64,000 nucleotides of DNA from Pseudomonas sp. GD03944 (GTDB lineage: Bacteria > Pseudomonadota > Gammaproteobacteria > Pseudomonadales > Pseudomonadaceae). The stretch lies in the NCBI RefSeq assembly GCF_029839275.1, contig NZ_JAOCAH010000012.1:62001-126000 (forward strand). The letters run 5' to 3'. Position numbers and translations under genes: made by a program. Below the pieces are notes generated by a model. It did no database searches and was not told where the DNA came from. It saw nothing but the letters and a program-made list of their open reading frames with translations. This document shows, piece by piece, positions 40,650-51,033 of the stretch. Numbering within the stretch: the first letter of the stretch is position 1; each line of letters starts with the position of its first letter.

Positions 40650-40681
40650 GGCAGGCTCCGCCTGCGACGGTAAACGTGCCC

Positions 40682-41455
40682 ATGTCGACAGTGCAGACCC
40701 TCAGAACCATCCTCTTCTATCTGCTCCTGTCCTCCAGTGCGTGCATCTGGAGCGTGATCAGCATGTTCGTTGCGCCGTTCCTGCCGTTCCGGGCGCGCTA
40801 CCGCTTCGTCAACCAGGCCTGGTGTGCCTGGGCGATCTGGCTGGCCAAGGTCCTGGTGGGCATCCGCTACGAGATCAGCGGCCTGGAAAACATCCCGCAG
40901 AAGCCCTGCGTGATCCTCGCCAAGCACCAGAGCACCTGGGAAACCTTCTTCCTCTCGGCGCTGTTCGAGCCCATGACCCAGGTGCTCAAGCGCGAGCTGC
41001 TGTACGTGCCGTTCTTCGGCTGGGCCATGGCCATGCTCAGGCCGATCGCCATCGATCGGGACAACCCCAAGGCCGCCCTCAAGCAACTCGCCAGCAAGGG
41101 CCATGAGCGCCTGGAGCAGGGCGTGTGGGTACTGATCTTCCCGGAAGGCACGCGCATTCCGCCGGGCCAGATCGGCAAGTTCTCCCGTGGTGGCGCCGCC
41201 CTGGCGGTCAACGCCAACCTGCCGGTACTGCCCATCGCTCACAACGCCGGCGAGTTCTGGCCGAAGGAAGGCTGGGCCAAGTACCCCGGCACCGTGCAGG
41301 TGGTGATCGGCCCGGCGATGTACGCCGAAGGCACCGGCCCGCGGGCCATTGCCGAACTCAACGACCGGGCATTTGCCTGGGTCAGCCAGGCACAACGGGA
41401 AATCGGTCACCTGCCGCCCGAAACCGCCCCGGTGGAGTCGGTCGAGGTCGCCTGA
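40682..41455 (+). CDS. plsC: 1-acyl-sn-glycerol-3-phosphate acyltransferase
   Basis: A 257-residue membrane-associated acyltransferase making phosphatidic acid from lysophosphatidic acid. An N-terminal membrane helix (about residues 8-32) precedes the catalytic H-x4-E motif KHQSTWE (His82, Glu87); HX4D is commoner, but E occurs in this branch. FPEGTR follows. The ATG at 40682 is preferred over the GTG at 40676. It is the core-genome acyltransferase next to gmhB, distinct from the second acyltransferase at 45879. Confidence 0.92.
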   Translation: MSTVQTLRTILFYLLLSSSACIWSVISMFVAPFLPFRARYRFVNQAWCAWAIWLAKVLVGIRYEISGLENIPQKPCVILAKHQSTWETFFLSALFEPMTQVLKRELLYVPFFGWAMAMLRPIAIDRDNPKAALKQLASKGHERLEQGVWVLIFPEGTRIPPGQIGKFSRGGAALAVNANLPVLPIAHNAGEFWPKEGWAKYPGTVQVVIGPAMYAEGTGPRAIAELNDRAFAWVSQAQREIGHLPPETAPVESVEVA

Positions 41456-41684
41456 CCGCGCTGTGGATAACCTGTTGAGGAATTTAATTTTCTTTAGAAA
41501 AAAAGCTTATAACTGTCTGATTTAACGAATTTTTATGTTGCACCCTGTTTGTCGATAAATTGGGCATAAGTTTTCTTCGCACCGTTGCATGACGCAGTTC
41601 ACGCACGGTGTAGAGCCGCCAGGAGGCGCAAACGGCTAAGCTGGCACGATCCAGTCGTTAAGCCGCGATGAAACGGAGTTCGCC
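41456..41684. other. AT-rich gap before the lipid operon
   Basis: A 229-bp gap whose first 120 bases are strikingly AT-rich against the local background (runs such as AATTTAATTTTCTTTAG and AAAAAAAGC). It begins with GTGGATAACC, close to a DnaA box in reverse (TGTGGATAA at 41462-41470). It most likely carries the promoter of the downstream six-gene operon, though no clear -35/-10 pair stands out. Confidence 0.5.
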
Positions 41685-42308
41685 ATGCTTTCGATCTACC
41701 AGCTCAAACCCCGCTTTCAGGCGCTGCTGCGCCCCCTGGTGCAGCAGCTCTACACCCACGGCGTCACCGCCAACCAGGTCACCCTCACCGCTGCCGTCGT
41801 CTCCGTGCTGCTGGGTCTGCTGCTCGCGGTGTTCGTCAGCCAGCTCTGGCTGTTCGCCCTGATTCCTTTGTGGATGCTGCTGCGCATGGCGCTCAACGCG
41901 GTGGACGGCATGCTGGCCCGGGAATTCGGCCAGCAGTCGAAACTGGGCGCCTACCTCAACGAACTCAGCGACGTGATCGCCGACGCCGCGCTCTATCTGC
42001 CCTTCGCCCTGCTGCCCGGCGTATCGCCGGTGCTGGTGGTGATCCTGGTGCTGCTGGCGGTTGTCAGCGAATACGCCGGAGTGATGGGGCCGATGATTGG
42101 TGTGTCGCGCCGCTATGACGGCCCCATGGGCAAGAGCGACCGCGCCTTCTGCTTCGGCGTGCTCGGCGCCGGCGTGGCCAGCGGCCTGCTGCCCCTGGGC
42201 TGGATCGATGCGCTGCTGCTGCTGATCACCGCACTGCTGCTCTATACGCTGTACAACCGCGTGCGCCAGGGTCTGGCCGAAGCGGTTGCCCCCTCTGTCT
42301 CGGAGTAA
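41685..42308 (+). CDS. CDP-alcohol phosphatidyltransferase family protein
   Basis: A 207-residue inner-membrane enzyme with about six helices that should transfer a phosphatidyl group from CDP-diacylglycerol to an alcohol. The CDP-AP motif D-G-x2-A-R-x8-G-x3-D-x3-D is recognisable in VDGMLAREFGQQSKLGAYL and the following NELSD, but the third aspartate, usually the catalytic-site residue, is Asn here (N-x3-D). The alcohol acceptor is unknown. It opens a six-gene operon of lipid enzymes. It is not PgsA or PssA by position or by motif. Confidence 0.85.
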   Translation: MLSIYQLKPRFQALLRPLVQQLYTHGVTANQVTLTAAVVSVLLGLLLAVFVSQLWLFALIPLWMLLRMALNAVDGMLAREFGQQSKLGAYLNELSDVIADAALYLPFALLPGVSPVLVVILVLLAVVSEYAGVMGPMIGVSRRYDGPMGKSDRAFCFGVLGAGVASGLLPLGWIDALLLLITALLLYTLYNRVRQGLAEAVAPSVSE

Positions 42309-42318
42309 GGAAAACCCG

Positions 42319-44076
42319 ATGAGCGAAGCCACCACCCAGCACTTCACCACCCACGACGGGGTCGACCTGTTCTACCGCCACTGGGCCGCCACGGATGCCC
42401 CGGCCGGCACACCCCGGCGCGCCATCGTGCTGTTCCACCGCGGCCACGAGCACGGCGGCCGGATGGCCCACCTGGTGGATGAACTGCAGCTGGGCGGTTT
42501 CGACTTCTTCGCCTGGGACGCTCGCGGCCATGGCGAATCGCCGGGCGAGCGGGGCGACAGCCCGAGTTTCGCCACCAGCGTGCGAGACGTACAGACCTTC
42601 ATCGACCATATCGCCGCCACCCACGGCCTCGCCACCGAAGACATGGTGGTCCTGGCGCAGAGCGTCGGCGCGGTGATCGTGTCCACCTGGGCCCATGACT
42701 ACGCTCCCAAGGTCCGCGCCCTGGTGCTCGCCTCGCCGGCCTTCAAGGTCAAGCTCTACGTGCCCTTCGCTCGCCCCGGCCTGAAGCTGATGCGCGCCTG
42801 GCGCGGCAACTTCTTCGTCAACAGCTACGTCAAGGCCAGGTTCCTGAGCCACGATCCGCAGCGCATCGCGTCGTTCGAGGCGGACCCGCTGATCACCCGC
42901 CCTATTTCTGTGAACATGCTGCTGGGCCTCTACGAAGCCGCCGATCGGGTGGTGGCCGATGCCCAGGCCATCCAGATCCCTACCCAGCTGCTGGTATCCG
43001 GCAGCGACTTCGTGGTGCACCGCAAACCCCAGGAGCAGTTCTTCGCGCGCCTGGGCAGCCTGCGCAAGGAGCTGCATGTGCTCCCCGGGTTCTTCCACGA
43101 CACCCTGGGCGAGCGCGATCGGGAACATGCCCTGGCGCGCATCCGCCGTTTCGTCCTGAAAACCTTCGAGGAACCGCTGCAGCGCCCCTCGTTGCTGGAT
43201 GCCGACCGACTGGGCTGGAGCTGCGCAGAAGCCGAGGAGCTGGCCGCTCCGCTGCCGAAGAACTCGCCGCGTGACCTTTACTGGCGCGCCACCCGGGCCA
43301 GCATGAAGTTCGGTAGCGGTCTTTCCGCCGGCGTGAAACTGGGTTTTGACACCGGCTTCGACTCCGGCAGCACCCTGGACTATGTGTACCGCAACACCCC
43401 CACCGGCACATCGCCGATCGGCAGGCTGATCGACCGCAACTACCTCAACTCCATCGGCTGGCGCGGCATCCGCCAGCGCAAGGTGCATGCCGAGGAATTG
43501 CTGCGTCTGGCCATGGCCAGGCTGCGGGAGCAGGGCCAGGGGGTGCGCATCGTCGATATCGCCGCCGGCCACGGCCGCTACATCCTCGAAGCGCTGGAGC
43601 AGGGCACAGAGAAGCCCGATTCGATCCTGCTGCGCGACTACAGTGATATCAACGTGCGCGACGGCGCGGCCCTGATCGCCCAGAAGGGCCTGGGCGATAT
43701 CGCCCGTTTCGTCAAAGGCGATGCCTTCGACAAGGCGGACCTGGCAACGCTTGATCCCAAGCCGACACTGGCGGTGGTATCCGGCCTGTATGAGCTGTTC
43801 GGCAGCAACCAGATGGTGGGTGACTCCCTGGCCGGTCTGGCAGCCGCCGTGGAGGAGGGTGGCTACCTGGTCTACACCGGCCAGCCGTGGCACCCGCAGC
43901 TGGAACTGATCGCCCGCGCCCTCACCAGCCACCGCGGTGGCCAGGCCTGGGTCATGCGCCGTCGCAGCCAGGCGGAAATGGACCAGCTCGTGGAAGCCGC
44001 CGGCTTCCGCAAGCTGACCCAGCGCATCGATGAGTGGGGCATCTTCAGTGTGTCCCTGGCGCAGCGGGTGTCCTGA
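42319..44076 (+). CDS. Alpha/beta-hydrolase fused to a SAM-dependent methyltransferase
   Basis: A 585-residue two-domain cytosolic protein. Residues 1-290 form a monoacylglycerol-lipase-like alpha/beta hydrolase: DARGHGESPGERGD, nucleophile Ser115 in AQSVG, the acid region in LLVSGSDFVVH and the His in LPGFFHDTLGE. After a linker, residues about 340-585 are a class-I methyltransferase with the SAM loop VDIAAGHGRYILEAL. The start at 42319 has AAGGA upstream; an ATG at 42286 is rejected. It follows the CDP-alcohol transferase by 10 bp and its stop overlaps the next start (TGATG). A lipid substrate for both activities is inferred from the operon. The domain pairing is conserved in pseudomonads, but I know no biochemical role. 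Confidence 0.85.
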   Translation: MSEATTQHFTTHDGVDLFYRHWAATDAPAGTPRRAIVLFHRGHEHGGRMAHLVDELQLGGFDFFAWDARGHGESPGERGDSPSFATSVRDVQTFIDHIAATHGLATEDMVVLAQSVGAVIVSTWAHDYAPKVRALVLASPAFKVKLYVPFARPGLKLMRAWRGNFFVNSYVKARFLSHDPQRIASFEADPLITRPISVNMLLGLYEAADRVVADAQAIQIPTQLLVSGSDFVVHRKPQEQFFARLGSLRKELHVLPGFFHDTLGERDREHALARIRRFVLKTFEEPLQRPSLLDADRLGWSCAEAEELAAPLPKNSPRDLYWRATRASMKFGSGLSAGVKLGFDTGFDSGSTLDYVYRNTPTGTSPIGRLIDRNYLNSIGWRGIRQRKVHAEELLRLAMARLREQGQGVRIVDIAAGHGRYILEALEQGTEKPDSILLRDYSDINVRDGAALIAQKGLGDIARFVKGDAFDKADLATLDPKPTLAVVSGLYELFGSNQMVGDSLAGLAAAVEEGGYLVYTGQPWHPQLELIARALTSHRGGQAWVMRRRSQAEMDQLVEAAGFRKLTQRIDEWGIFSVSLAQRVS

Positions 44077-45428
44077 TGACGCCCGCCGTGGTTCTCCGGG
44101 AAGCCGGATTATGGAAGCGCGGCGTACTCTGGCTGTTGTTGCTCGCCCCGCTGTTCTTCAGCACTTATGGCTTCGCCAACTGGTTCACCGGCCAGCGCGA
44201 TGACGTCGGCAGCCTGGTGTTCGGCTGGGAACGGCACATGCCGCTGTGGCCCTGGACGATCATTCCCTACTGGTCGATCGATCTGCTCTACGGCCTGTCG
44301 TTCCTGCTGCCGGCCAGCCGCGGCGAGATGGACCGGCATGGCCTGCGCCTGCTCACCGCCCAGGTGATCTGCATCGCCTGCTTCCTGCTCTGGCCCCTGC
44401 GCTTCACCTTCGAACGGCCGGAACTGGACGGCCTGTTCGGGCTGATGTTCGACGTACTGATGGGCTTCGACAAACCCTTCAACCAGGCGCCATCGCTGCA
44501 TATCACCCTGCTGGTGGTGCTCTGGGCCTGCTTCGCTCACTACGCCACCGGCCTGTGGCGTGTGGTGCTGCATACCTGGTTCTTCCTCATCGGGCTCTCG
44601 GTGCTGACCACCTGGCAGCACCACTTCATCGATGTGCCCACCGGCCTGCTCGCCGGCTTCCTCTGCCTGTGGCTGTGGCCGAGCGAAGGGCGCAGCCCGT
44701 TGCTGGCCTGGCGCCTGGCGCGCGATTCCGGACGGTGGCGCCTGGCCTTGCGCTACAGCCTTGGAGCGGCGCTGTGCAGCGTGCTGGCGGTGAACATCGG
44801 TGGCGCGGCGTTGTGGCTGCTGTGGCCGGCCCTGTCTCTGCTGCTGGTGGCGCTGAACTATGCGCTGTTCGATGCCCGGGGGTTTCAGAAACGTGCCGAT
44901 GGCCGCCTGAGCGCGGCCAGCAATTGGTTGTTGGCGCCCTACCTGCTCGGCGCCTGGATCAACTCCCGGGCCTGGACCCGGCGGCACCCGCAGCCTGATG
45001 AAGTCGCCGACGGCATCTGGCTCGGGCGCATCCCGGCGCCCGGGGAGGGCCATTCATTCGCGGCCATCGCCGACCTCTGCGCCGAGTTGCCCTGCAAGGC
45101 CGAAGGGCGTGTGTACCGGGAACTGGCAACCCTGGACCTGATCGCTCCCAGCCCTCAGCACTGCCTGGATGCCGCTGTGGCCATCGAAGACCTGCGTCAA
45201 CATGGGCCGGTCCTGGTGTGTTGCGCCCTGGGGTATTCGCGCAGCGCCACCGCGGTGGCAGCCTGGTTGCTGCACACAGACCGCTGCACGAGCGTCGCAG
45301 AGGCGCTCGATCGCCTGCGCCAGGCTCGCCCTCAGGTTGTCCTGGGAGAGGCTCACCAACGCGCTCTGCAGGCCTTGCTGGCGCTTCCGGCGCCTTCTGT
45401 TACCGGTGAGGTCGTCCATGGCCAGTGA
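44076..45428 (+). CDS. PAP2 phosphatase fused to a dual-specificity phosphatase
   Basis: A 450-residue membrane protein. The N-terminal half has about six helices of the PAP2 (phosphatidic acid phosphatase type 2) fold, with APSLHIT as the central motif and HHFIDVPTG as the final His-x3-Asp motif. The C-terminal cytosolic part (about 310-450) is a dual-specificity phosphatase domain with the C-x5-R loop CALGYSRS (Cys383, Arg389). Mitochondrial PTPMT1, a relative of the second domain, dephosphorylates phosphatidylglycerol phosphate, so a lipid-phosphate substrate is plausible. It overlaps the fusion gene upstream by one base and the small gene downstream by 11. Confidence 0.85.
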   Translation: MTPAVVLREAGLWKRGVLWLLLLAPLFFSTYGFANWFTGQRDDVGSLVFGWERHMPLWPWTIIPYWSIDLLYGLSFLLPASRGEMDRHGLRLLTAQVICIACFLLWPLRFTFERPELDGLFGLMFDVLMGFDKPFNQAPSLHITLLVVLWACFAHYATGLWRVVLHTWFFLIGLSVLTTWQHHFIDVPTGLLAGFLCLWLWPSEGRSPLLAWRLARDSGRWRLALRYSLGAALCSVLAVNIGGAALWLLWPALSLLLVALNYALFDARGFQKRADGRLSAASNWLLAPYLLGAWINSRAWTRRHPQPDEVADGIWLGRIPAPGEGHSFAAIADLCAELPCKAEGRVYRELATLDLIAPSPQHCLDAAVAIEDLRQHGPVLVCCALGYSRSATAVAAWLLHTDRCTSVAEALDRLRQARPQVVLGEAHQRALQALLALPAPSVTGEVVHGQ

Positions 45429-45867
45429 CCTGCAACTGCAACTCGTGGCGACCCTGTTACGCCGGGGCAAGGCCATCGACCGGCTGTCCAGCGCTGTGCT
45501 CTTGCTGGCCCTGGCCATCGGCCTGTCGCCATTGCTCGGTGTAGCAACATCACTGCTTGCCGCCGGGCTGTGCACGGCACTGGTGGTATTGGGTGGCGTA
45601 CAGAAGTTCTATGCCATCCGGGTAGCCATCGATGCCGAGCTGTTTCAGCACCTGTCCCAGGCGCCCGATCAGCTAGAGCGGCGCACCGCGGAACTCGACC
45701 AGGCGCTGCTCGGCCTTGGTCAACCTGCCGCCAATGCCGGACGCTCCTGGGCACAACGCAGCCAGGGCGCACTGGGTTTGTTGCGGCGCCAGGCCCTGTG
45801 GTGCGGCCTGCAATTGCTCGTCGCGGTGTCGGCCGTGCTGCTGATGCCCTGGCTGTCGAACGGATAA
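45418..45867 (+). CDS. Small predicted membrane protein of the lipid operon
   Basis: A 149-residue protein that I do not recognise. Two hydrophobic segments flank a charged central helix: residues about 25-58 (a hairpin-length stretch LLALAIGLSPLLGVATSLLA and on) and 125-145 (LQLLVAVSAVLLMPWL). The middle (ELFQHLSQAPDQLERRTAELDQ) is helical and polar. It overlaps the PAP2/DSP gene by 11 bases and precedes the acyltransferase by 11, so it belongs to the operon. A scaffolding or partner role is only a guess. Confidence 0.75.
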   Translation: MASDLQLQLVATLLRRGKAIDRLSSAVLLLALAIGLSPLLGVATSLLAAGLCTALVVLGGVQKFYAIRVAIDAELFQHLSQAPDQLERRTAELDQALLGLGQPAANAGRSWAQRSQGALGLLRRQALWCGLQLLVAVSAVLLMPWLSNG

Positions 45868-45878
45868 GGACCACGCTC

Positions 45879-46499
45879 ATGCTCGCTTCTTTCGTTGCAT
45901 TCCTCATCACCTCAGGCGCGCGTCTGCTCACCGGCGCCCGCGCGCTGTGGCTCGGCAGCACACCGCTGCCGGTGCAGCGCATCTATTACGCCAACCACAG
46001 CAGCCACGGCGACTTCGTGTTGCTCTGGGCTTCGCTGCCTCCCGAGCTGCGTCAGCGCACCCGCCCGGTCGCCGGCTCGGACTACTGGATGAAGGGTGGG
46101 CTGCGCAGCTTCCTGATTCAGCGCGTGTTCAACGGTGTGCTGGTGGACCGGCAACGCAGTTCCTCCGACCACAATCCACTGCAGGCCATGCTCGACGCCC
46201 TGGAGCAGGGTGATTCACTGATCGTGTTCCCGGAGGGTACGCGCAACCTGGAGGAGGGCTTGCTGCCGTTCAAGAGCGGGCTCTACCACCTGGCCAGGGC
46301 GCGCCCCGATGTCGAGGTGATCCCGGTGTGGATTGCCAACCTCAACCGCGTCATGCCCAAGGGCAGGGCTTTGCCATTGCCGCTGCTGTGCACCCTGAAC
46401 TTCGGCGCTCCGCTGGGCATGGGTGAAGAGGAGGGCAAAGAGGCGTACCTCGAACGTGCCCGCGATACGCTGCTGGCCATGGCGCCCGAGGAGGTCTGA
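45879..46499 (+). CDS. PlsC-type acyltransferase of the lipid operon
   Basis: A 206-residue glycerolipid acyltransferase. The catalytic HX4D motif is NHSSHGD (His40, Asp45) and the glycerophosphate-binding motif is FPEGTR (residues 117-122). It is shorter than the core PlsC at 40682 and has only one N-terminal hydrophobic stretch. Family members esterify lysophosphatidic acid or related lysolipids. Its presence in the same operon as a CdsA-like enzyme suggests it supplies a phosphatidic acid substrate. Confidence 0.88.
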   Translation: MLASFVAFLITSGARLLTGARALWLGSTPLPVQRIYYANHSSHGDFVLLWASLPPELRQRTRPVAGSDYWMKGGLRSFLIQRVFNGVLVDRQRSSSDHNPLQAMLDALEQGDSLIVFPEGTRNLEEGLLPFKSGLYHLARARPDVEVIPVWIANLNRVMPKGRALPLPLLCTLNFGAPLGMGEEEGKEAYLERARDTLLAMAPEEV

Positions 46500-46500
46500 G

Positions 46501-47433
46501 ATGGATCGCAATACCCTTCTGCTGTTCGCCGGTATCGGCGGCATCCTGCTCCTGGCGAGCATCATCGGGCGCGTGCTGAAATTCCGCGCAGGCAACGAAC
46601 CCCACCCGGTCATCGACAACCTCAACGCGCGCATCAACGCCTGGTGGGTGATGGTGCTGGTGATCGGCTTCGCCTTTCTGTTCGGCAACGTCGGCGTGGT
46701 GGTGCTGTTCTACTGCGTGTCGTTCTACGCCCTGCGCGAGTTCATGACCCTGACACCGACCCGGCGCAGTGACTACCCGGCGCTGGTAGCCGCCTTCTAC
46801 TTCGCGCTGCCGATGCAGTACCTGCTGGTGGGCATCGGCTGGTACGGCCTGTTCGCCATCTTCATCCCGGTCTACCTATTCCTGCTGCTACCAATCCTGT
46901 CGTCCCTGGGCGGCGACACCACGCGCTTCCTCGAGCGAACGTCCAAGGTGCAGTGGGGACTGATGATCGCGGTGTATTGCATCTCCACCGTACCGGCGCT
47001 GCTGACCCTGGAGATCCCGGGTTACGAAGGGCGGCAGTTGCTGCTGATCGCCTGGCTGGTGATCGTGGTGCAACTGTCGGACGTGTTGCAGTACGTATGC
47101 GGCAAGCTCGCCGGGAAAACCAAGATCGCGCCCAACCTGTCACCCTCCAAGACCGTCGAAGGCTTCGTCGGTGGGGTAGCGCTGGCCACGCTGATTGGCG
47201 CGTCGCTGTGCTGGATCACGCCGTTTGCCTTCTGGCAGGCCGGGCTGTTCGCCCTGCTGGTCTGCCTGCTCGGCTTTGCCGGTGGCCTGGTGATGTCGGC
47301 GATCAAACGCGACCGCGGCGTGAAGGATTGGGGGCACATGATCGAGGGCCACGGCGGCATGCTCGATCGCCTCGATTCGGTGTGTTTCGCCGCCCCGGTG
47401 TTCTTCCACATGGTGCGCTACTGGTGGGCCTGA
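46501..47433 (+). CDS. Phosphatidate cytidylyltransferase (second CdsA-type)
   Basis: A 310-residue inner-membrane enzyme with about eight helices. It carries the complete CDP-diglyceride synthase signature at residues 266-292 (SAIKRDRGVKDW, then EGHGGMLDRLDS). It makes CDP-diacylglycerol from phosphatidic acid and CTP. This is an extra copy: the housekeeping cdsA of pseudomonads lies elsewhere beside uppS and dxr. It is the last gene of the operon, one base past the acyltransferase stop, and is followed by a strong terminator. Confidence 0.92.
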   Translation: MDRNTLLLFAGIGGILLLASIIGRVLKFRAGNEPHPVIDNLNARINAWWVMVLVIGFAFLFGNVGVVVLFYCVSFYALREFMTLTPTRRSDYPALVAAFYFALPMQYLLVGIGWYGLFAIFIPVYLFLLLPILSSLGGDTTRFLERTSKVQWGLMIAVYCISTVPALLTLEIPGYEGRQLLLIAWLVIVVQLSDVLQYVCGKLAGKTKIAPNLSPSKTVEGFVGGVALATLIGASLCWITPFAFWQAGLFALLVCLLGFAGGLVMSAIKRDRGVKDWGHMIEGHGGMLDRLDSVCFAAPVFFHMVRYWWA

Positions 47434-47464
47434 AGACACGTTGCGTAACTCACTGATTAAAAAC

Positions 47465-47492
47465 AAAAAACCCGGCCTAGGCCGGGTTTTTT
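47465..47492. terminator. Bidirectional Rho-independent terminator
   Basis: Perfect palindrome CCCGGCCTAGGCCGGG (47471-47486) preceded by AAAAAA and followed by TTTTTT. It lies between the convergent CdsA-like and gyrB genes and ends both transcripts. Confidence 0.92.
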
Positions 47493-47507
47493 ATTGGAGC
47501 GAGACCG

Positions 47508-51033
<3,526 letters not shown>

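What the first reader, a model, noticed from the sequence alone, without database searches (positions are those of the whole stretch)
41685..47433. Self-contained six-gene lipid-enzyme operon of unknown product
Six genes in 5.7 kb have gaps of at most 11 bp or overlap. In order they encode a CDP-alcohol phosphatidyltransferase, an alpha/beta-hydrolase-methyltransferase fusion, a PAP2-dual-specificity-phosphatase fusion, a small membrane protein, a PlsC-type acyltransferase and a second CdsA. Acyltransferase, CdsA, CDP-alcohol transferase and phosphatase are the four consecutive steps of making a phospholipid such as PG via PGP. This suggests a dedicated route to a special membrane lipid, or a lysolipid salvage and remodelling route, with the hydrolase and methyltransferase tailoring the product. 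I recall a similar set in P. aeruginosa (PA2536-PA2541), there away from the origin; its product is not known to me. Here it is placed between plsC and gyrB.
Basis: partly seen in the sequence, partly recalled or inferred. Interest (0 to 1): 0.85.

Follow-up and report, generated by a model that had tools for sequence, protein, structure and literature searches.

The report
Arc1-type lipid operon with odd enzyme
This is a Pseudomonas copy of a known but chemically unsolved lipid-enzyme operon that helps a related species survive attack by neighbours' lipid-cutting toxins, and its central enzyme lacks two active-site residues long called indispensable, which makes its unknown product easier to hunt for.

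Summary
In detail: six tightly packed genes at 41685-47433, between a plsC-like gene and gyrB. By gene order and domains it is the arc1A-F operon (PA2541-PA2536), a Gac/Rsm-controlled antagonism-resistance cluster (eLife 2022); arc1A is needed for full resistance to lipase effectors (Nat Commun 2025). E. coli ynbABCD is a four-gene form. The set co-occurs in shuffled orders in gamma-, beta- and alphaproteobacteria, with smaller forms in a cyanobacterium and Fusobacterium. The product is unknown. Two published negatives speak against a spare PG route: E. coli YnbB does not replace CdsA, YnbD does not replace PGP phosphatases. New here: Arc1A/YnbA carries N-x2-DG...G-x3-N-E-x2-D in 141 of 141 homologues, so two of eight 'absolutely conserved' family residues (metal ligands D1, D3) are Asn. 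Of 55 other family members checked, 53 keep all four Asp; the only other Asn-Asn one sits in a small cluster with Arc1E- and Arc1F-like genes. Arc1A keeps the presumed base and the two arginines that hold the acceptor's phosphate in PI-phosphate synthases, whose fold it matches better than PgsA's, but the genome has no inositol-phosphate synthase. Best reading: a side pathway making phosphatidyl-X from CDP-DAG and a phosphorylated alcohol, plus lysolipid handling.

The parts
41456..41684 (+). Leader / promoter region, 229 bp, with Shine-Dalgarno-like ACGGAG at 41673-41678
   Evidence: Read. No sigma-70 consensus site found in 41300-47600. The CGCC-AGGA-GGCG stretch at about 41617-41628 is not seen in the leaders of L050-L052, the closest loci by gene B, and the leader folds no better than shuffles, so RsmA control is not shown here.
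41685..42308 (+). arc1A/ynbA: CDP-alcohol phosphotransferase-fold protein (207 aa) with Asn at two metal-ligand positions (N71, N92); D74, D96, R153 and R192 kept
42319..44076 (+). arc1B/ynbC: alpha/beta hydrolase (nearest monoglyceride lipase / lysophospholipase L2) fused to methyltransferase (Methyltransf_20), 585 aa
   Evidence: S115, D230, H260 and D413-x-A-x-G-x-G conserved in the reduced set; their catalytic and SAM-binding roles are inferred
44076..45428 (+). arc1C/ynbD: PAP2-like membrane part plus dual-specificity phosphatase domain (450 aa; CALGYSR at 383-389)
45418..45867 (+). arc1D: small protein with hydrophobic stretches (149 aa), no Pfam or NCBIfam match; L14, R68, D72, D94, R109, R114 invariant in 20 sequences
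45879..46499 (+). arc1E: PlsC/LPLAT-type acyltransferase (206 aa), HX4D and PEGTR motifs kept
46501..47433 (+). arc1F/ynbB: CdsA-type phosphatidate cytidylyltransferase (310 aa) with the conserved C-terminal signature
47465..47492 (.). Perfect inverted repeat AAAAAACCCGGCC-TA-GGCCGGGTTTTTT between convergent F and gyrB, terminator-like in both directions
   Evidence: Read directly; the consensus scan did not list it

Best explanation
The operon is the arc1 (antagonism resistance cluster 1) operon of this Pseudomonas, related to E. coli ynbABCD. It most likely runs an inducible side-branch of phospholipid metabolism. E acylates a lysolipid such as lysophosphatidate, F turns phosphatidate into CDP-diacylglycerol, A moves the phosphatidyl group to a small alcohol that itself carries a phosphate (X-P, probably not inositol phosphate), and where C is present its phosphatase part removes that phosphate to leave phosphatidyl-X. 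The hydrolase half of B removes or recycles lysolipid or acylglycerol by-products and its methyltransferase half modifies substrate or product. The outcome is a membrane that survives phospholipase toxins better. Shown here: gene set, co-occurrence, homologies, the altered motif of A. Published: the defence role of arc1 in P. aeruginosa. Inferred: every reaction step, the identity of X, and that this species uses the operon in the same way.
For: Gene order and domains fit arc1A-F as described for PA2541-36 (PMC8926400; PA2537 is listed as 'probable acyltransferase' in PMC2246019, matching gene E). arc1A loss sensitises P. aeruginosa to V. cholerae, less so without active TseL, and to A. baylyi carrying only Tle1 (PMC12663445). 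A and F go together: in the 28 genomes outside the genus, A is linked to B in 27, F is linked in 23 and present elsewhere in the other 5; one genome without a B match has a small cluster of an A relative, E and F. A Moraxella plasmid frame carries A and the front of B. F keeps the CDS signature. A keeps D2 and D4, and R153/R192 align with the two arginines (R153, R191) thought to hold the acceptor phosphate in the R. salmoninarum PI-phosphate synthase (roles from PMC4634129); both are invariant in 39 and in 33 sequences. The C phosphatase domain matches dual-specificity phosphatases, PTPMT1 among them (Z 16.9). B's hydrolase half is nearest monoglyceride lipases and lysophospholipase L2. The genome has RsmY and TssK-type T6SS genes and no match to inositol-phosphate synthase.
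Against: No product, substrate or activity has been measured. Asn at D1 and D3 could mean loss of catalysis: D3 bridges both Mg ions in one state of the M. tuberculosis enzyme. The A relative of the B-less cluster has no Arg in the R192 column, so the arginine pair is not universal. C is missing from 2 of 20 fetched unnamed Pseudomonas loci, and 5 of the 7 genomes checked that lack C at the locus have none, so the phosphatase step is not obligatory. E is absent from the E. coli chromosomal cluster. In P. aeruginosa arc1A looks auxiliary: losing arc1A and aas on top of arc3A did not add to sensitivity to V. cholerae; only one Arc1 gene passed the cut-off for Tle3 defence and no single-effector mutation relieved the Arc1 defect, so the lipase link is not clean. 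Homology to PAO1 proteins was not aligned directly. Gac/Rsm control in this species is untested and the leader gives no clear support.
Confidence: 0.5

Rival explanations
1. Spare phosphatidylglycerol route: E, F, A and C are inducible copies of PlsC, CdsA, PgsA and PGP phosphatase that refill PG (and PE through CDP-DAG) after lipase damage.
For: Domain set of the four consecutive steps; [quoted passage not shown] the C phosphatase domain matches PTPMT1 among others.
Against: E. coli YnbB does not complement a cdsA knock-out even when over-produced (reported there as data not shown), and YnbD from a plasmid does not complement the PGP-phosphatase-less strain (PMC6362211; PMC7413402; I did not see whether YnbD protein was made). 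A scores 24.4 bits against the PgsA model (cut-off 109.1) but 73.6 and 48.3 against two inositol-phosphate models, also under their cut-offs; fold Z 20.6 to PIP synthase against 11 to PgsA. Asn at D1 and D3 in 141 of 141.
Confidence: 0.17
2. Lysolipid clearance first: the operon mainly detoxifies lysophospholipids made by lipase toxins (B hydrolyses them, E re-acylates them, F pulls the phosphatidate onward), and A is a regulatory or binding subunit rather than an enzyme.
For: Lipase-effector phenotype of arc1A; monoglyceride-lipase/lysophospholipase-like B; altered active site of A; patatin-like phospholipase beside B in a Moraxella plasmid.
Against: A has 34 invariant columns in 33 diverse sequences, the presumed base and the arginine pair among them, much for a scaffold; the hydrolase half is absent from the Pseudanabaena version, which keeps A, F, E and the methyltransferase; one cluster has A, E and F relatives without any B.
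Confidence: 0.18
3. Glycolipid route: F (YnbB-like) and A make a sugar-phosphate or pyrophosphate-linked diacylglycerol related to MPIase, helping envelope protein insertion under stress.
For: Over-production of E. coli YnbB raises MPIase (PMC6362211); a phosphate-binding arginine pair in A would fit a sugar-phosphate acceptor.
Against: A ynbB deletion leaves MPIase not significantly changed; no sugar-handling domain in the operon.
Confidence: 0.08
4. A is a pseudoenzyme kept in an operon whose real output is CDP-DAG and modified lysolipid.
For: Loss of two metal ligands, one of which bridges both metals in the M. tuberculosis enzyme.
Against: The two Asn, the neighbouring Glu and the base Asp are invariant in the reduced sets that span Pseudomonas, E. 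coli, Burkholderia, Shinella, Fusobacterium and Pseudanabaena, which is not how decaying sites look.
Confidence: 0.07

Closest known systems
arc1A-F of Pseudomonas aeruginosa (PA2541-PA2536)
   Same: Six predicted proteins, five lipid-related, in an order that fits as far as the papers describe it; RsmY and TssK-type genes present in this genome.
E. coli ynbABCD
   Same: A, F, B and C homologues in one direction, with the same Asn-Asn motif in YnbA.
   Different: No D and no E at the chromosomal locus; order A-F-B-C. Three E. coli plasmids carry A-F-E-B versions with C short or missing, a Citrobacter plasmid A-F-E-B-C plus a small hypothetical gene in D's place.
Phosphatidylinositol-phosphate synthases (M. 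tuberculosis PgsA1, M. kansasii and R. salmoninarum PIPS)
   Same: Fold (Z 18.5 to 20.6), the arginine pair for the acceptor's phosphate, the presumed base.
   Different: D1 and D3 are Asn; the basic residue after D4 (R94 in M. tuberculosis, critical there) is Val97; no inositol-phosphate synthase match in the genome.
PgsA / PssA-type genes of the same genome
   Same: CDP-alcohol phosphotransferase family.
   Different: They keep D-x2-DG...D-x3-D; lower fold likeness of A to solved PgsA and PSS.
Aas/LplT lysophospholipid repair and Arc3
   Same: Both contribute to resistance against phospholipase effectors (PMC8926400, PMC12663445).
   Different: Different protein families; arc1 and arc3 losses are additive in P. 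aeruginosa against B. thailandensis, the relation of arc1 to aas is not resolved in the passages I saw.

Membership tests
arc1 operon (PA2541-PA2536) | Six genes A-F: CDP-alcohol PT, hydrolase-methyltransferase, PAP2-DSP, small membrane protein, acyltransferase, CdsA | tested here: met
   the paper text gives the set only in outline; the gene-by-gene PAO1 order is recalled, apart from PA2537
arc1 operon (PA2541-PA2536) | Direct sequence orthology to the PAO1 proteins | not tested
   No P. aeruginosa record was among the 80 loci kept
arc1 operon (PA2541-PA2536) | Gac/Rsm control | tested here: inconclusive
   RsmY RNA present, 101 bits; upstream GGA sites not consistent among leaders, leader fold not better than shuffles
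arc1 operon (PA2541-PA2536) | Protection against interbacterial lipase effectors | not testable with these tools
   Published for P. aeruginosa arc1A
E. coli ynbABCD | Homologues of all four genes, clustered | tested here: met
Class I CDP-alcohol phosphotransferases | Pfam profile and six-helix fold | tested here: met
   29.2 bits over cut-off 22; Z up to 20.6, rmsd 2.8 over 193 residues
Class I CDP-alcohol phosphotransferases | Eight-residue signature D-x2-D-G-x2-A-R...G-x3-D-x3-D | tested here: not met
   6 of 8 kept in the window protein; D1 and D3 are Asn in 141 of 141 (137, 4 more); of 55 other members 53 are D,D,D,D, one D,D,D,H by the best pattern, one N,D,N,D
PgsA (PGP synthase) | NCBIfam TIGR00560 cut-off 109.1 bits | tested here: not met
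   24.4 bits
PI-phosphate synthase | NCBIfam NF045883 cut-off 170 bits | tested here: not met
   48.3 bits
PI-phosphate synthase | Two arginines for the inositol-phosphate group | tested here: met
   R153 and R192 aligned with R. salmoninarum R153 and R191 (native numbers by counting along the printed alignment); the M. tuberculosis alignment in the same call is one residue off at the first site and ends before the second
PI-phosphate synthase | Basic residue after D4 | tested here: not met
   Val97, 90% or more in 33 sequences
PI-phosphate synthase | Inositol-phosphate supply (Ino1, PF01658) in the genome | tested here: not met
   No match
CdsA (housekeeping) | NCBIfam NF008635 cut-off 385 bits | tested here: not met
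   84.5 bits; the CTP_transf_1 domain itself is met, 235 bits
PTPMT1-like PGP phosphatase | Dual-specificity phosphatase fold with CX5R loop | tested here: met
   C383-x5-R389; Z 16.9 to PTPMT1, tied with many other DSPs
PTPMT1-like PGP phosphatase | PGP phosphatase activity | not testable with these tools
   Published negative for E. coli YnbD by complementation

The most novel reading that the evidence does not exclude
Arc1A/YnbA founds a separate, catalytically active kind of CDP-alcohol phosphotransferase whose metal centre is rebuilt with two Asn (and a neighbouring Glu), always paired with its own CDP-DAG synthase (F), so that it joins CDP-diacylglycerol to a phosphate-bearing acceptor no known member uses. 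With the hydrolase-methyltransferase (B) it makes an undescribed, switched-on-under-attack phospholipid that lipase toxins handle poorly, in bacteria from E. coli to cyanobacteria.
Probability: 0.3. Interest if true: 0.82.

Novelty: new variant of a known kind. Interest (0 to 1): 0.53.

Why it matters
What arc1/ynb makes is open in every paper I opened. The set is common: 4550 of 5426 complete E. coli genomes match the A-C stretch by DNA (the rows shown lie in the ynbC-like gene), and arc1 is one of few named defences linked to bacterial lipase toxins. Showing that the central enzyme breaks the family signature in a fixed way, that it travels with its own CDP-DAG synthase, and that published complementation speaks against a spare PG route turns 'probably PG' into a sharper question: which phosphorylated alcohol does A use? 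That can be answered with purified protein or with lipidomics of laboratory E. coli.

Tried and rejected
Inositol lipid as product: suggested by NCBIfam, PDB sequence and fold matches, set aside because the genome has no PF01658 match and the basic residue critical for inositol phosphate is Val here.

RsmA-binding hairpin in the leader: the window has CGCC-AGGA-GGCG about 60 bases before the start, but it is not seen in the leaders of L050-L052, and by the list upstream GGA sites differ from lineage to lineage and are lacking in several; the window leader folds worse than the mean of its shuffles (z 1.16). Not used as evidence.

Link to Arc3: the genome has no DUF2339 match. Phage carriage: no match to B in 50,697 phage records.

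Asn-Asn motif as exclusive to clusters with B: tested by reading all 52 CDP-OH matches in other genomes of a class sample of 19 (the window's genome and one without a match included) and the three others of the window's genome. A first script picked wrong frames; a second preferred canonical motifs and saw 29 + 3; a third, neutral to D or N, repeated those 32 (all D,D,D,D) and read the other 23: 21 D,D,D,D, one D,D,D,H by the best pattern (L264), one N,D,N,D (L265). The last is an Arc1A relative (75.7 bits) directly before E- and F-like genes (260 and 463 bits) with no B, C or D match nearby. So the motif is not tied to B; and because distribution was measured with B as tag, B-less clusters are under-counted here.

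PAP2 half of C as a PAP2 family member: under the Pfam cut-off for the window protein (22.5 of 27.2 bits); the fold searches were filled by the phosphatase domain, so the PAP2 half was barely tested.

Paper searches: YnbA/YnbB (the hit with most mentions is about B. subtilis), PA2536-41 (6), YnbB/CdsA/MPIase (13), arc1 (14), CDP-alcohol phosphotransferase with asparagine (62), YnbC/YnbD (77), ynbABCD (78, none), PA2537 (82), YnbA with CDP-alcohol (104), Arc1A (105). In these listings and in the passages opened I saw no mention of the two Asn; nothing outside this open-access library was searched. ynbC disruption and polyphosphate (PMC2435150), ynbA in a c-di-GMP screen (PMC13031359), ynbC in a persistence table (PMC13313352), inositol lipids in Bacteroidetes (PMC9246714) and PA2537 in a mouse screen (PMC2246019) were seen as passages and give no mechanism for this operon.


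Full report
WHAT IS THERE. They follow a PlsC-type acyltransferase gene at 40676-41455 (upstream lie glyS- and gmhB-like genes; from memory this is the PA0005/lptA position) and face gyrB, with a perfect inverted repeat ending in T runs at 47465-47492 between F and gyrB. Pfam assigns CDP-OH_P_transf (A), Hydrolase_4 plus Methyltransf_20 (B), DSPc with a sub-threshold PAP2 (C), Acyltransferase (E) and CTP_transf_1 (F); D has no family. The genome (5.13 Mb, 28 contigs) has a second CTP_transf_1 gene and three other CDP-OH genes.

WHAT IT IS CALLED. Ting et al. 2022 (PMC8926400; abstract, Results parts 1 and 2 of 3, Discussion and found passages read) named PA2541-36 arc1A-F: an operon under Gac/Rsm control that P. 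aeruginosa needs against the T6SS of B. thailandensis, five of six genes lipid-related and four like PG-synthesis enzymes. Arc1 defence could not be tied to one effector there, and only one Arc1 gene passed the cut-off against Tle3. A 2025 CRISPRi study (PMC12663445, passages) found arc1A needed for full resistance to lipase effectors of V. cholerae (TseL) and A. baylyi (Tle1), with arc1A called auxiliary beside arc3A. A 2025 preprint (PMC11888443, passages) lists Arc1-3 as Gac/Rsm targets. PA2537 is given as a probable acyltransferase in PMC2246019 (passages), which fits gene E. So the window operon is arc1 by order and domains. A direct alignment to PAO1 was not possible: the one scan of named genomes kept 80 other Pseudomonas loci.

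DISTRIBUTION. With Methyltransf_20 (gene B) as tag, 82 of 149 genomes of the genus match, one of them (G396) only weakly; 12 of 370 of the class and 31 of 397 of the phylum are over the cut-off, the window's genome included in each. By DNA, 4550 of 5426 complete E. coli genomes match the A-C stretch. In the plasmid collection 65 of 72,556 records match, 29 over at least 80% of the protein, some of them chromosome-sized; phages none. Around B, profiles built from the set itself give: 80 named Pseudomonas loci, A 80, C 80, D 80, E 79, F 79 (the miss is a 6-kb contig); 20 unnamed Pseudomonas, A 20, C 18, D 20, E 20, F 20; 9 class genomes, A 8, C 5, D 3, E 5, F 8; 19 further phylum genomes, A 19, C 18, D 15, E 15, F 15, and 14 of these 19 have all five; 14 annotated records, picked by hand from search listings, A 12, C 10, D 1, E 9, F 13. 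The two records counted without A are a Kosakonia plasmid and a Moraxella plasmid whose A lies in one frame with the front of B (residues 4-205 A, 234-432 B). Three weak B matches (G008, G314, G396) were fetched and left out of these counts; only B was seen in them. In Shinella, Rhizobium and Citrobacter the small gene in D's place is annotated as hypothetical and not recognised by the D profile. A few genomes occur twice under different loci. Gene orders differ: A-B-C-D-E-F, A-F-E-B-C, A-F-B-C, A-B-C-D-F-E, F and E divergent from A-B-C-D, A divergent from the rest, so linkage outlasts rearrangement. All 5 of the 28 genomes outside the genus that lack F at the locus hold an F orthologue elsewhere, 58-60% identical, besides one at 33-38%. 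C behaves otherwise: of 7 genomes checked that lack C at the locus, 5 have no C match, G132 has a copy elsewhere with one internal stop, and G265 has a PAP2-like piece and a weak phosphatase piece apart; G267, searched as well, has its linked copy. One class genome (G013), with no B match, has an A relative followed directly by E- and F-like genes. A and F are thus the steadiest pair, B nearly always with them.

THE CENTRAL ENZYME IS ATYPICAL. Class I CDP-alcohol phosphotransferases share D1-x2-D2-G-x2-A-R...G-x3-D3-x3-D4, 'eight absolutely conserved residues' (PMC4634129, passages; also PMC9385802, passages). In M. tuberculosis PgsA1 the four Asp bind two Mg ions, D3 can bridge them and D4 is the presumed base (PMC6506517, passages); D4 to Asn nearly abolished activity. 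The window protein reads N71-AV-D74-G-ML-A-R-x8-G88-AYL-N92-E93-LS-D96. All 141 A-family ORFs found have Asn, Asp, Asn, Asp at the four places: 137 by pattern and the other four by eye (there the Arg after Ala is Lys or Asn). The set holds many close Pseudomonas; in reduced sets N71, N92, E93, D74 and D96 are invariant in 39 of 39 and 33 of 33, E. coli, Citrobacter, Burkholderia, Shinella, Fusobacterium and Pseudanabaena among them. Control: all 52 CDP-OH matches in the other genomes of a 19-genome class sample plus the three others of the window's genome, 55 in all, read with a script that does not prefer D over N: 53 D,D,D,D; one D,D,D,H by the best pattern; one N,D,N,D. That one is the A relative of G013, which also has the Glu after the second Asn, and it lies beside E- and F-like genes. 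So the pair of Asn marks the Arc1A/YnbA family and its relatives with an Arc1F-type partner.

WHAT A MAY DO. Sequence and fold place A with PI-phosphate synthases: NCBIfam 73.6 bits (archaeal inositol type) and 48.3 (PIP synthase) against 24.4 for PgsA, all under their cut-offs; PDB sequence hits are PIP synthases first; the AlphaFold model (pLDDT 92.9, 26 sequences) matches PIP synthases at Z 18.5-20.6, AF2299, DIPP synthase and cholinephosphotransferases at about 13-17, PgsA and PSS at about 11. In the R. salmoninarum alignment A's R153 and R192 fall on R153 and R191, the pair thought to hold the acceptor's phosphate, conserved in PIP synthases and not in eukaryotic PI synthases; both are invariant in A, though the G013 relative lacks the second. 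The basic residue after D4, critical for inositol phosphate in M. tuberculosis, is Val97. With no inositol-phosphate synthase match in the genome, the acceptor is probably some other phosphorylated alcohol. This is inference.

THE OTHER GENES. F keeps the CdsA signature. E. coli YnbB raised MPIase when over-produced but did not complement a cdsA knock-out, the latter as data not shown (PMC6362211, passages). C has an intact CX5R phosphatase domain with PTPMT1 among many equal fold matches and a PAP2-like half with conserved PSLH and H-x3-D; E. coli YnbD complemented neither the undecaprenyl-pyrophosphate nor the PGP phosphatase strains (PMC7413402, passages). These two negatives are for E. coli relatives (C there 42% identical to the window's), and each protein might need its partners. 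B joins a monoglyceride-lipase/lysophospholipase-like hydrolase to a methyltransferase; the Pseudanabaena form has only the methyltransferase, and the Kosakonia form has a weak hydrolase match beside fatty-acid-synthesis-like genes. E keeps HX4D and PEGTR.

MECHANISM AND VERDICT. I favour an inducible phosphatidyl-X pathway with lysolipid handling, for defence against lipase attack (0.5), over a spare PG route (0.17), lysolipid clearance with A as a non-enzyme (0.18), an MPIase-like glycolipid (0.08) and a pseudoenzyme reading (0.07). The operon itself is a new member of a known kind; what lies off the known map is the enzyme family at its centre, hence 'new variant'. RsmY (101 bits) and TssK-type genes show that the published setting exists in this genome, but control of the operon here is not shown.

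Noticed in passing
   Followed up: partly
L154 7299-15242 (Moraxella osloensis plasmid pNP7-2): A and the front of B lie in one reading frame, which then breaks inside the hydrolase part; downstream are a patatin-like phospholipase and a short-chain dehydrogenase, and divergent F and PAP2 genes.
   Followed up: partly
L155 3811-9605 (Kosakonia cowanii plasmid p888-76-2): A gene-B homologue with a strong methyltransferase but weak hydrolase match sits beside acyl-carrier-protein, ketosynthase, MaoC, FabG and metal-hydrolase-like genes, without A or F nearby.
   Followed up: partly
L048 6511-10651, L196 5510-9701, L197 5510-9618 (E. coli plasmids): Plasmids carry an A-F-E-B version of the cluster in which gene C is reduced to a short piece or not recognised; in L048 gene A is annotated as frameshifted.
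   Followed up: no
L153 5817-11403 (Citrobacter sp. TSA-1 IncF plasmid): A-F-E-B-C plus a small hypothetical gene lie between a Tn3-family transposase with its recombinase and the plasmid replication genes, which suggests mobility.
   Followed up: no
L131 and L138 (two unnamed Pseudomonas, G484 and G508): Gene C is absent between B and D, and no C match was found elsewhere in either genome.
   Followed up: yes
28 of 100 Pseudomonas loci: The operon sits near gyrB/lptA-like genes in 28; in the other 72 these were not seen in the stretch held, so it has probably changed place within the genus.
   Followed up: partly
window 45418-45867: Gene D has no family; most of its few invariant residues (R68, D72, D94, R109, R114) are charged, unusual for a mere membrane anchor.
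   Followed up: no
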